Assembly (NCBI RefSeq): GCF_001767395.1 | Contig: NZ_CP017014.1 | Location: 2,674,501 to 2,738,500, forward strand | DNA length: 64,000 bases | Reading direction: 5' to 3' | Source of the DNA: Rhodococcus sp. WMMA185 | GTDB lineage: Bacteria > Actinomycetota > Actinomycetes > Mycobacteriales > Mycobacteriaceae | Shown: piece by piece, positions 35,069-45,086 of the stretch | Layout: every line of letters starts with the position of its first letter | How positions within the stretch are numbered: the first letter of the stretch is position 1 | Notes under the pieces: generated by a model | Database searches by the model: none | The model's input: only the letters and a program-made list of their open reading frames with translations | What the model was told of the DNA's origin: nothing | Program-made: the position numbers and the translations under genes

Positions 35069-35731
35069 CTACCGACCTCCTCGCTCGGCGCCCGATACGT
35101 CGCGGGTGGCCCGGTCGCACGGCGGCTCTGCCGACTCACCTCGCGGTAGCGCAGCGTCCAACTGCGCCGCCCAATTGCGTACGACCTCGGCACGCCGCTT
35201 CGAATCGTCCGTGAGTACGTCCGCGAGGCCGAGTCCGCGGGCGAGGTCGAGGGTGGCCTGCACCAGACCGTGTGCGATCGGATCCCCGTCATCGAACCCT
35301 AGGTGTTCGACGGCGGTGCGGTGCGCGACCCGGCCGAACCGTTCCTCGAGCGGCAAAATCCGCGCCCGGAGTTCGGGGTCTGCGGCCGCCGCCGTCCACA
35401 CCTGTAGCGCCGCCTTGAACAGGGTTCCCGTGTAGTACTCGACGAGCCTCGACACCACCGCCTCCGTACGACCCGCCCCGGTTGGGAGATCGGTGGCCTC
35501 GCGGCGCGCCTGCTCCATCCGAGCCTCGAACATGACCTCGAGTGCCGCCGTGAAGAGGTCTTCACGCGTGGGGAAGTGGTGCTGGGCCGCGCCGCGCGAC
35601 ACACCGGCACGCTGAGCCACGAGGCTGACCGTCGTGGCCGCCCAACCCTGTTCGGCGAGACAATCGATGGTTTCCTCGAGAAGGTGTCGTCGCGTGACCC
35701 GGCTACGGTCCTGCTTCGGTTCGCTGGTCAT
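35069..35731 (-). CDS. TetR family transcriptional regulator of the acyl-CoA operon
   Basis: A 220-residue TetR repressor-type protein. The helix-turn-helix is in TTVSLVAQRAGVSRGAAQHHFPTREDLFTAAL, residues about 27-58; the C-terminal ligand domain (LVEYYTGTLFKAALQVWTAAAADPELRARI) is of the TetR-C type common for acyl-CoA sensing regulators. It follows the enoyl-CoA hydratase by 79 bases on the same strand. It most likely controls the operon from an acyl-CoA signal, acting at the 45087-45177 region, but this is inferred from context. ATG 35731 is chosen over the frame to 35818 that overlaps the hydratase. Confidence 0.85.
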   Translation of the reverse strand: MTSEPKQDRSRVTRRHLLEETIDCLAEQGWAATTVSLVAQRAGVSRGAAQHHFPTREDLFTAALEVMFEARMEQARREATDLPTGAGRTEAVVSRLVEYYTGTLFKAALQVWTAAAADPELRARILPLEERFGRVAHRTAVEHLGFDDGDPIAHGLVQATLDLARGLGLADVLTDDSKRRAEVVRNWAAQLDAALPRGESAEPPCDRATRDVSGAERGGR

Positions 35732-35810
35732 CGTGTACCTTCCGCTCTCGGCGCTACGGCCCGGTGCGCGGGCCCTAGTCCCGTGTATGTCGTCGAGTCG
35801 AGGTAACCCC

Positions 35811-42598: not shown

Positions 42599-44298
42599 AG
42601 AGCTTTCCCTTCGAGGAGTTCGTTCGGAACATCGATGTGACGCGAGCGCAGCCACTCGCCGAGTCCCTTGGCCTGCGGGTCGAACCGCGCCTGCGACGCA
42701 ACACCCTGGCCGAGGATTCCCTCGATGACGAAGTTGACTGCGCGCAACTTCGGCAGCACGTACCGCGTGACGGTGAGGTCCGCGGCTTCCGGGAGAAGTC
42801 GCTTCACCTCGTCGACCGTCAGCACGTGCGCGAGCCAGCGCCACTCTTCGTCGGTGCGCACCCACACACCGACGTTCGCGTTGCCGCCCTTGTCACCACT
42901 GCGTGCACCGGCGACCGCGCCCAGCGGGACGCGGGTCGTCGGCCCCGCGTTCAACGGGAGCGGCAGGTCGGGTTCGGCGACGTTCTCGAGGTCACGGACC
43001 TCGGCGGTGGGCTCGACGTCCACGCGTGCGCCGTTTGGCAACACCGCGACGTGCGGCACCTGCTTGGCATCGACATAGCCGGGTGTGAAGACGCCGTAGG
43101 GCTCGCCGTGGCTCGGTGGCGCGGTCAGCGTGAATCCGGGATAGCTCGCAAGAGCGAGTTCCACGGCGACGGAGGAGAACCCTCGCCCCACCACCTTCGG
43201 GTCGGAGTCCCGTACGACGCAGCGCAATAGAGCGCTCGCTGCCTCCTCGGTGTCGGCGTCGGCGTGGTCGGTGCGTGCGAGGGACCAGTCGAGTTCGGCC
43301 GGGCGCCTGACGAGCCCGCCTTCGATCTGACGCTGCACCAGTGCCGCCTTGTCCTCGATGTCGAGGCCGGTGAGAACGAACACGGCCTCGTTCCGGAACC
43401 CTGCAAGGCTGTTCAGCGAGACCTTGAGTCGTGGAGGCGGCGCCTCACCGACTACTCCGCTGATGCGCACGCGATGCGGGCCGACCTGCGTGAGTTCGGC
43501 GGTGTCGATGCGGGCGGTGACGTCCGGTCCGGCGTAGCGGCCGCCGGCTACTTCGTACAGCAGCTGCGCGGTGACGGTGCCGACGGAGACCGCGCCGCCG
43601 GTGCCCGCATGCTTGGTGATCACCGATGAGCCGTCGGCCTCGATCTCGGCGATCGGGAAGCCGGGATGGTCGAGGTCGGCGATCTCGGTGAAGAACGCGT
43701 AGTTACCACCCGTGGCCTGGGTGCCGCACTCGATGACGTGACCGGCCACCACCGCCCCTGCGAGCTGGTCGAAATCGTCGCGTTGCCAGCCGAAGTGCGC
43801 AGCAGCCGGGCCGACGATCACCGACGCGTCGGTGACCCGTCCGGTCACCACGACGTCGGCACCCGCATTCAAGCACTCGACGATGCCCCACGCTCCGAGA
43901 TATGCGTTGGCCGTCAACGGATTTCCGAGTTCGAGCTCGGCCGCACGGGCGATCAGGTCATCACCCTCGACATAAGCGATCTTCGCCGACAGCCCGAGCT
44001 TGTCATTCACCGCGTGCAGGGCATCTGCCAGCCCGGAGGGGTTGAGGCCCCCGGCGTTGGCGACGATCCGCACGCCCTTGTCGAGCGCCAGTCCCAGACA
44101 GTCCTCCGCCTGACGGAGAAACGTCTTGGCGTAGCCGAGGGTTGGATCCTTCATCCGGTCCCGGCCGAGTATCAGCATGGTCAACTCGGCGAGGTAATCG
44201 CCCGTCAAATAGTCGAGTTCGCCCGCTTCGAGCATCTCGCGCATCGCCGACAGGCGGTCGCCATAGAAGCCCGAGCAGTTGCCGATCCGTACGGTCAT
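42595..44298 (-). CDS. AtuA-like protein (DUF1446, acyclic terpene utilisation family)
   Basis: A 567-residue protein of the AtuA/DUF1446 family. It starts VRIGNCSGFYGDRLSAMREML and contains LDYLTGDYLAELTMLILGR, VVVTGRVTDASVIVGPAA and GATQATGGN-like CGTQATGGNYAFF; the C-terminal 100 residues (GARSGDKGGNANVGVW) form the second AtuA domain, fused here in one chain. AtuA is needed for citronellol/geraniol catabolism in Pseudomonas but its reaction is unknown. Orthologue by position of Rv0976c. ATG 44298 overlaps the preceding stop (ATGA). Confidence 0.85.
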   Translation of the reverse strand: MTVRIGNCSGFYGDRLSAMREMLEAGELDYLTGDYLAELTMLILGRDRMKDPTLGYAKTFLRQAEDCLGLALDKGVRIVANAGGLNPSGLADALHAVNDKLGLSAKIAYVEGDDLIARAAELELGNPLTANAYLGAWGIVECLNAGADVVVTGRVTDASVIVGPAAAHFGWQRDDFDQLAGAVVAGHVIECGTQATGGNYAFFTEIADLDHPGFPIAEIEADGSSVITKHAGTGGAVSVGTVTAQLLYEVAGGRYAGPDVTARIDTAELTQVGPHRVRISGVVGEAPPPRLKVSLNSLAGFRNEAVFVLTGLDIEDKAALVQRQIEGGLVRRPAELDWSLARTDHADADTEEAASALLRCVVRDSDPKVVGRGFSSVAVELALASYPGFTLTAPPSHGEPYGVFTPGYVDAKQVPHVAVLPNGARVDVEPTAEVRDLENVAEPDLPLPLNAGPTTRVPLGAVAGARSGDKGGNANVGVWVRTDEEWRWLAHVLTVDEVKRLLPEAADLTVTRYVLPKLRAVNFVIEGILGQGVASQARFDPQAKGLGEWLRSRHIDVPNELLEGKAL

Positions 44299-45086
44299 CG
44301 CGATCCCGCTTCGCGGCCTCCGCCGGCCGGGCCGGCAAACGCCTGCGCGATGTCCAGCCAGGCACCGGCCTCCGGGCCGGTGGCGACGAGGGCCAGATCC
44401 TGCCGGTGAGCGCGCTGGGTAACGAGCAGACAGAAGTCCTCCGCCGGCCCGGTCACCCTCTGAACTGCATCTTCTGGACCCCAGACCCACAGTGAGACCC
44501 CGTCGGGGGCGGTGAGTTCGACTCGGAACTCCTCAGCCGGAGGCGTGAGCCCGTTGACCACGAAGGCGAAGTCGCGGGTACGCACACCGAGGTGGGCGAT
44601 GCTCCTGAGTCGCTCGGTCGGCTTACGTGACACGGACAACGCGTCCGCGACGTCCTGACCGTGTGCCCACGTCTCCATCAATCGGGCGGTCGCCATCGAC
44701 GCCGCCTTCATCGGCGGGCCGTACCAAAGGATCTTCTGTCCGGGGGGAACTGTCATCAGGGCCTCGGCAAGACGCGCCCTCGTCGTACGCCAGTTCGCGA
44801 GCAGTTCCGCGGGTGGGCGCTGTGCGTGCTCTTCTGCGCCGGCGTCGACGAATCCGGCTGGGTTCGACGCAGCCACCGTCAACTGTTCAGTAAAGCCGTC
44901 GGGGTTCGTGATCGCCTGCAGGGCGGCCTCATCCGTCCACAACAGATGTCCGATCTGGTGGGCGATGGTCCAGCCTTCGGCTGGAGTCGGCTCGGCCCAG
45001 CGGGAATCGGGGATACCCGCTACCAGCGCATCCAGCGACTCACTCTCAGCACGCATGTCATCAATGAACCTCTGCAGTTCGACCAT
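44295..45086 (-). CDS. TIGR03084 family protein (DinB/mycothiol-dependent maleylpyruvate isomerase-like)
   Basis: A 263-residue member of the actinobacterial TIGR03084 family. WTIAHQIGHLLWTDEAAL and METWAHGQDVADAL supply His and Glu/Asp residues at the DinB-fold metal-binding positions; the C-terminal half (RVELTAPDGVSLWVWGPEDA) resembles the MDMPI C-terminal domain. Some DinB-fold enzymes use mycothiol or a metal ion; its reaction here is unknown. ATG 45086 is preferred over a longer frame to 45125 that crosses the promoter. It is the first gene of the accA2-type operon, divergent from an SDR gene. Confidence 0.8.
   Translation of the reverse strand: MVELQRFIDDMRAESESLDALVAGIPDSRWAEPTPAEGWTIAHQIGHLLWTDEAALQAITNPDGFTEQLTVAASNPAGFVDAGAEEHAQRPPAELLANWRTTRARLAEALMTVPPGQKILWYGPPMKAASMATARLMETWAHGQDVADALSVSRKPTERLRSIAHLGVRTRDFAFVVNGLTPPAEEFRVELTAPDGVSLWVWGPEDAVQRVTGPAEDFCLLVTQRAHRQDLALVATGPEAGAWLDIAQAFAGPAGGGREAGSR

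What the first reader, a model, noticed from the sequence alone, without database searches (positions are those of the whole stretch)
35069..45086. accA2/accD2-type operon joined by stop-start overlaps; substrate unassigned
Six genes (TIGR03084, AtuA-like, dehydrogenase, carboxyltransferase, biotin carboxylase, dehydrogenase) each overlap the next by four bases, then a hydratase, TetR and two DUF3558 lipoproteins follow. The order matches my memory of Rv0976c-fadE13-accD2-accA2-fadE12-echA7, whose substrate is not settled as far as I know. Both dehydrogenases have Glu at the helix-G position used by isovaleryl-CoA dehydrogenase, and an AtuA-like protein is present, which together point to a branched or terpenoid acyl-CoA. 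The carboxyltransferase lacks the GGTYYPIT pattern of methylcrotonyl enzymes, and the hydratase lacks one catalytic Glu, so it may not be the leucine pathway.
Basis: partly seen in the sequence, partly recalled or inferred. Interest (0 to 1): 0.75.

Follow-up and report, generated by a model that had tools for sequence, protein, structure and literature searches.

The report
Operon for breaking down branched acids
This stretch holds a widely conserved bacterial gene set whose substrate was unknown; it looks like a complete chemical kit for removing an awkward methyl branch from large branched fatty acids, probably terpene-like ones, rather than another copy of the leucine pathway.

The parts
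44295..45086 (-). TIGR03084 family protein (MDMPI/DinB-like, possible mycothiol/metal enzyme); first gene of the operon
   Evidence: NCBIfam TIGR03084 369 bits, Pfam MDMPI_N; found in 16 of 20 related loci
42595..44298 (-). AtuA-family protein, proposed acetate-releasing 3-hydroxy-3-alkylglutaryl-CoA lyase; ATG at 44298
41450..42598 (-). acyl-CoA dehydrogenase 1 (FadE13 position), GTG start, Glu in helix G
   Evidence: Pfam; PDB 3oib 638 bits; best own-genome match of AtuD; residues
39855..41453 (-). carboxyltransferase beta subunit (AccD2 type), Gly158 at the size-selectivity position
   Evidence: Pfam Carboxyl_trans; alignments; trees
37798..39858 (-). biotin carboxylase-BT-BCCP alpha subunit (AccA2 type), EAMKM biotin site
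   Evidence: Pfam BC domains, BT_MCC_alpha, Biotin_lipoyl; EAMKM
36641..37801 (-). acyl-CoA dehydrogenase 2 (FadE12 position), Glu in helix G
   Evidence: Pfam; Glu of the NPER motif in 22 of 22 orthologues aligned
35811..36611 (-). enoyl-CoA hydratase (EchA7 position), AtuE-like single-Glu active site
   Evidence: NF005879 425 bits over cut-off 283; best own-genome match of AtuE; residues
35069..35818 (-). TetR regulator (GTG 35818, or ATG 35731)
   Evidence: Pfam TetR_N; found in 16 of 20 related loci
34539..35120 (-). DUF3558 lipoprotein (ATG 35057 also possible)
   Evidence: Pfam DUF3558; found in 1 of 20 related loci, so an accessory part
33988..34542 (-). second DUF3558 lipoprotein
   Evidence: Pfam DUF3558; found in 1 of 20 related loci

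Best explanation
The operon encodes a self-contained beta-decarboxymethylation module. A 3-methyl-branched acyl-CoA larger than isovaleryl-CoA cannot pass beta-oxidation because its beta-carbon carries a methyl group. Proposed steps: (1) acyl-CoA dehydrogenase C (perhaps with F) makes the 2-enoyl-CoA; (2) the AccA2-AccD2 type carboxylase D+E carboxylates the methyl group, giving a 3-alkylglutaconyl-CoA; (3) hydratase G adds water, giving a 3-hydroxy-3-alkylglutaryl-CoA; (4) AtuA (B) cleaves off acetate, by citramalate-lyase-like chemistry that may use ATP, leaving a 3-oxoacyl-CoA that beta-oxidation can finish. TetR regulates. Shown here: gene content and order, the residue patterns, separateness from the leucine operon, and the AtuA fold match. 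Inferred: every reaction and substrate. An isoprenoid acid (citronellate-like or longer) is the most likely class. The roles of TIGR03084, of the second dehydrogenase and of the lipoproteins are open.
Against: The carboxyltransferase is a third clade; its order relative to MCC and GCC is unresolved, and group-conserved alignment columns shared with MCC only (36) outnumber those shared with GCC only (14). AtuF matches the leucine-operon alpha subunit better (511 bits) than window E (408); AtuC is nearly a tie (467 vs 462). The AtuD and AtuE margins are small (263 vs 250, 106 vs 95). The gamma-carboxygeranoyl-CoA hydratase model is matched far under its cut-off (150 of 426). No acyl-CoA synthetase or alcohol dehydrogenase lies in the operon. 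The hydratase is missing from 11 of 20 related loci and dehydrogenase C from 2. 11 of 41 genomes have the AccD2 type but no MCC, so there it could serve leucine. The AtuA model is middling (pLDDT 68; residues 297-406 poor; a shallow alignment of 69 Pseudomonas-group sequences plus the window), identity to citramalate lyase is 18%, and the sequence match alone is weak (best stretch E 0.006). A review assigns the lyase step of Pseudomonas to LiuE, not AtuA, and this genome has an HMG-CoA-lyase-like gene elsewhere.
Confidence: 0.6

Rival explanations
1. A second methylcrotonyl-CoA carboxylase operon: an isozyme set for leucine or isovalerate.
For: The enzyme families are those of leucine breakdown; 11 of 41 genomes have only the AccD2 type; more group-conserved columns are shared with MCC than with GCC.
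Against: This genome has a leucine-type operon elsewhere; the selectivity Phe and the insertion are absent; the M. smegmatis double deletion had no leucine or isovalerate phenotype in the passages seen (PMC4347857); AtuA does not follow MCC across genomes.
Confidence: 0.1
2. A carboxylase for a non-isoprenoid substrate, such as a 3-methyl-branched lipid or polyketide acid made by the cell itself, with AtuA cleaving the matching hydroxyglutaryl-CoA. Same chemistry, different physiology.
For: The operon's AtuA is common in actinobacteria (89 of 150 genomes of the order; 45 of 296 of the phylum at E 1e-100), more than a niche terpene pathway would suggest; in M. tuberculosis the matching operon is induced 20-300 fold in hypoxia and stationary phase (PMC9283954, passages), which suggests an internal substrate.
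Against: The nearest studied system with AtuA, this carboxylase type and this hydratase type is the acyclic terpene pathway.
Confidence: 0.25
3. AtuA is not the lyase of this pathway; an HMG-CoA-lyase-type enzyme encoded elsewhere does that step, and AtuA acts on another small hydroxy acid such as citramalate.
For: An HMGL-type gene exists at C1:3124247 (189 bits to PRK05692, under its cut-off of 246); a review names LiuE as the lyase in Pseudomonas; AtuA-like genes split in two lie beside a transporter family in 3 loci, of which the L084 member was scanned and is CitMHS, a citrate-type transporter.
Against: AtuA is linked to the carboxylase in 20 of 20 loci chosen and follows it across genomes; another paper annotates AtuA as the acetate lyase (PMC4847356, passages).
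Confidence: 0.25

Closest known systems
accD2-accA2 operon of mycobacteria (Rv0971c-Rv0976c)
   Same: echA7, fadE12, accA2 and accD2 stand in the same order (table in PMC4564863) and fadE13 belongs to the same operon; that fadE13 is Rv0975c and that Rv0976c is AtuA-like is recalled.
   Different: The window adds TIGR03084 in front and TetR plus two DUF3558 lipoproteins behind; no M. tuberculosis sequence was compared for this operon.
Acyclic terpene utilisation (Atu) cluster of Pseudomonas
   Same: AtuA, carboxylase alpha and beta, dehydrogenase and hydratase all have a counterpart; Gly at the selectivity site, helix-G Glu, single-Glu hydratase.
   Different: No AtuB, AtuG or AtuH in the operon; two dehydrogenases; separate carboxyltransferase clade; the alpha subunit is not closest to AtuF.
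Leucine/isovalerate operon with methylcrotonyl-CoA carboxylase (AccD1-AccA1)
   Same: Same reaction types.
   Different: Phe and three-residue insertion present there, absent here; hydratase and lyase in this genome's leucine operon are MaoC and CitE types.
Citramalate lyase CmlAB (PDB 9evf, 9erq)
   Different: Two chains there, one fused chain here; 18% identity; the expected substrate is a CoA ester.

Membership tests
Methylcrotonyl-CoA carboxylase (leucine pathway) | Phe at position 191 (P. aeruginosa numbering) with the three-residue insertion | tested here: not met
   Window has FIPG-GRMF, no insertion; 22 of 22 MCC-type have it
Methylcrotonyl-CoA carboxylase (leucine pathway) | Carboxyltransferase clusters with characterised MCCs | tested here: not met
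   MCC group (including P. aeruginosa 3u9r) and AccD2 group are each one side of a branch, SH-aLRT 98 and 99
Acyclic terpene utilisation (Atu) pathway | Geranyl-type selectivity residue (Gly162) and no insertion | tested here: met
   Gly158 aligned to Gly162
Acyclic terpene utilisation (Atu) pathway | Carboxyltransferase clusters with characterised GCC | tested here: inconclusive
   AccD2 plus GCC support 47; the two alternatives not rejected, p-AU 0.67 and 0.68
Acyclic terpene utilisation (Atu) pathway | AtuA protein encoded with the carboxylase | tested here: met
   PF07287 520 bits, same operon
Acyclic terpene utilisation (Atu) pathway | Alpha subunit closest to AtuF | tested here: not met
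   AtuF scores 511 bits with the leucine-operon subunit, 408 with window E
Acyclic terpene utilisation (Atu) pathway | AtuB/AtuG dehydrogenases and AtuH acyl-CoA synthetase in the cluster | tested here: not met
   None in the operon; one divergent SDR at 45178-46032 with no relative over 45% identity in the 40 related loci
Acyclic terpene utilisation (Atu) pathway | Activity on geranyl-CoA | not testable with these tools
   Needs enzyme assay
AtuA/CmlA lyase fold family | Fold of citramalate lyase subunit A | tested here: met
AtuA/CmlA lyase fold family | Shared conserved residues (GRxxD, EC) | tested here: met
   hmmsearch alignment; R154, D157, E190, C191 in 40 of 40 AtuA rows
AtuA/CmlA lyase fold family | Acetate-releasing lyase activity | not testable with these tools
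   Needs enzyme assay
accD2-accA2 operon of mycobacteria | echA7-fadE12-accA2-accD2 in this order, with fadE13 in the operon | tested here: met
   Compared with published gene lists only; window order B-C-D-E-F-G; place of fadE13 recalled
accD2-accA2 operon of mycobacteria | Sequence orthology with the M. tuberculosis genes | not tested
   No named mycobacterial locus was fetched

The most novel reading that the evidence does not exclude
AtuA is an ATP-using, acetate-releasing lyase fused from citramalate-lyase A and B type domains, and the widespread actinobacterial accD2 operon is a complete beta-decarboxymethylation module that recycles isoprenoid chains (for example menaquinone or polyprenol side chains) when growth stops, which would explain its strong induction in hypoxic and stationary M. 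tuberculosis.
Probability: 0.2. Interest if true: 0.85.

Novelty: new variant of a known kind. Interest (0 to 1): 0.6.

Why it matters
The substrate of AccD2-AccA2 was left open by the study that solved AccD1-AccA1 (PMC4347857, passages), and a transcriptome study counts the operon among the strongly induced ones in hypoxic and stationary M. tuberculosis (PMC9283954, passages). A concrete reaction scheme with a named lyase makes the question testable with a few substrates. It could also settle which protein performs the acetate-releasing step of terpene breakdown, on which two papers disagree, and give the AtuA family (PF07287) a general reaction.

Tried and rejected
Leucine isozyme: rejected as main reading (separate leucine operon, selectivity residue, tree). 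Firm membership in the Atu family: not claimed, because the alpha subunit, the cluster content and the tree do not support it. Phylogeny to decide between MCC and GCC kinship: three groupings could not be separated. Dehydrogenase tree (13 own enzymes put in, of 23 own places listed, besides the window's two): window C falls in a weakly supported group (82/78) with AtuD and four other own enzymes, so no specific sisterhood. Inverted repeat as TetR operator in 45060-45200: none found. AtuA homology to HMG-CoA lyase or to the CitE-type lyase by profile comparison against one sequence each: none. AtuA in viral contigs: none. Recurrent neighbours as a substrate clue: one family of which the L065 member is an AMP-binding acyl-CoA synthetase recurs in 9 of 40 stretches of 17-19 kb, 2 of the first 20 and 7 of the second 20. 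phmmer of a split AtuA-like protein from L084 against the PDB: no match, so its kinship to citramalate lyase is untested. The second batch of 20 AtuA loci (L065-L084; 36-60% identity) has the carboxyltransferase in the stretch in only 6 of 20, in other orders. Literature: the last search, for citramalate lyase, gave 7 papers, by their listing none on 9evf; (AtuA or DUF1446) was swamped by Portuguese words and tested nothing.
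Full report
Observation. The ten genes are present on the minus strand, in the order TIGR03084, AtuA, dehydrogenase, carboxyltransferase, biotin carboxylase, dehydrogenase, hydratase, TetR, DUF3558, DUF3558. The first six are joined by five 4-base stop-start overlaps.

Conservation. The genome is one contig of 4,444,448 bases. 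AtuA is found in 89 of 150 genomes of the order, 37 of 56 genera, and in 45 of 296 of the phylum at E 1e-100. I took 20 of the AtuA matches with 64-75% identity, spread over genera. In 20 of 20, AtuA, carboxyltransferase, biotin carboxylase and second dehydrogenase stand in this order; 14 of 20 keep TIGR03084 to second dehydrogenase complete; the first dehydrogenase is present in 18, the hydratase in 9, TetR in 16, the lipoproteins in 1 (matches of 45% identity or more). The 4-base overlaps recur: A/B 15 of 16, B/C 15 of 18, C/D 16 of 18, D/E 13 of 20, E/F 15 of 20. A second batch of 20 weaker matches (36-60%) has the carboxyltransferase in the stretch in only 6.

Not the leucine operon. The genome has eight places that match the carboxyltransferase family. 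One, at C1:780579, is 48% identical to the window protein and lies with a biotin carboxylase, a dehydrogenase, a MaoC-type hydratase and a CitE-type lyase. It carries the RQDEVFPDREHFGRIF stretch that PMC4347857 (passages) names as shared by M. tuberculosis AccD1 and the P. aeruginosa methylcrotonyl enzyme, and scores 1003 bits to the AccD1 structure. The window protein lacks this stretch. That paper reports that M. smegmatis without accD2-accA2 showed no methylcrotonyl-CoA build-up and grew like wild type on isovalerate, and leaves the substrate open.

Selectivity residue. PMC4673880 (section 8 read whole, other passages seen) shows by structure and mutants that Phe191 in the methylcrotonyl enzyme against Gly162 in the geranyl enzyme decides between the small and the large substrate; the methylcrotonyl enzyme also has a three-residue insertion there. 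P. aeruginosa PA7 AtuC has this Gly at 162 and it aligns without a gap to window Gly158. Over the aligned set, 33 of 33 AccD2-type proteins lack the insertion and have Gly (28), Ala (4) or Ser (1); 22 of 22 MCC-type have EHF or DHF; 6 of 6 GCC have Gly. The MCC group was defined by that motif, but the trees recover the same groups. The YY of the methylcrotonyl motif (22 of 22) is SN in 22 of 33 AccD2-type and other non-aromatic pairs in the rest.

Counter-evidence on kinship. The AccD2 group is separate from both MCC and GCC, and no grouping is favoured (support 47 for AccD2 with GCC; p-AU 0.67 and 0.68 for the alternatives). Among group-conserved alignment columns, 36 are shared with MCC only and 14 with GCC only. 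AtuF prefers the leucine-operon subunit; AtuC is nearly a tie. I therefore say 'works like', not 'is', an Atu cluster.

Dehydrogenases and hydratase. Window C and F have Glu in helix G, conserved in 18 of 18 and 22 of 22 orthologues aligned, as in AtuD (3 of 3); the leucine-operon dehydrogenase has the C-terminal Glu instead (the naming of the two positions is recalled). In the whole genome, AtuD's best match is window C (263 bits, next 250) and AtuE's is window G (106, next 95).

Mechanism. Citramalate lyase cleaves HO-C(R)(X)-CH2-COO- into pyruvate and acetate (recalled chemistry; the PDB title names only ADP and pyruvate). The terpene pathway needs just this cut on 3-hydroxy-3-isohexenylglutaryl-CoA, giving acetate and a 3-oxoacyl-CoA. 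PMC4847356 (passages) lists AtuA as that lyase; PMC4097962 (passages) lists LiuE. HMG-CoA lyase cuts on the other side, giving acetyl-CoA (recalled). The fold result favours AtuA. With it, dehydrogenase, carboxylase, hydratase and lyase are all in one operon, which is a complete beta-decarboxymethylation module. Use of ATP is only suggested by the bound ADP.

Physiology. In M. tuberculosis the matching operon is induced 20-300 fold in hypoxia and stationary phase (PMC9283954, passages) and echA7, fadE12, accA2 and accD2 are lowered in two BCG conditions (PMC4564863, passages). This speaks for an internal or host-derived substrate as much as for plant terpenes. The substrate remains open.

Novelty. 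Searches of the held library: geranyl-CoA carboxylase (15 of 15 papers listed), accD2 with accA2 (14 of 14), the Rv and gene names (12 of 12), terpene with actinobacterial names (14 of 14), AtuA with citronell- (15 of 23), DUF1446 (7 of 7), AccD2 with acyl-CoA carboxylase (20 of 30) and geranyl-CoA carboxylase with actinobacterial names (20 of 18,638). None of the titles and abstract beginnings listed assigns this operon's substrate; eight papers were opened, seven in passages only. The gene set is known; the assignment of AtuA as its lyase and of a geranyl-type residue to AccD2 appears new within those searches.

Noticed in passing
window 28594-32985, minus strand: The str operon (S12, S7, EF-G, EF-Tu) lies downstream of the operon, beyond a plus-strand CMD-family gene at 33544-33963.
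   Followed up: no
window 23567-25878, minus strand: Two adjacent acyl-CoA dehydrogenases overlapping by four bases, which could form a heteromeric pair.
   Followed up: no
window 45178-46032, plus strand: A short-chain dehydrogenase is transcribed divergently from the operon; its best relatives in the 40 related loci are general SDRs of 36% identity or less, or a 65-residue piece of 45%.
   Followed up: partly
L082, L083, L084: AtuA-like genes split into a large and a small open reading frame beside a transporter family (CitMHS in L084), reminiscent of a two-subunit citramalate lyase; phmmer of one large part found no PDB match.
   Followed up: partly
G000:C1:3124247-3124999 (L197): An HMG-CoA-lyase-like gene outside the leucine operon, 189 bits against a cut-off of 246.
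   Followed up: partly
window 48424-49626, minus strand: Adenylate/guanylate cyclase with an Ad_Cy_reg domain.
   Followed up: no
genomes G001, G004, G008, G015, G020, G022, G028, G030, G033, G038, G040: 11 of 41 genomes have the AccD2 type but no MCC-type carboxyltransferase at E 1e-100.
   Followed up: no
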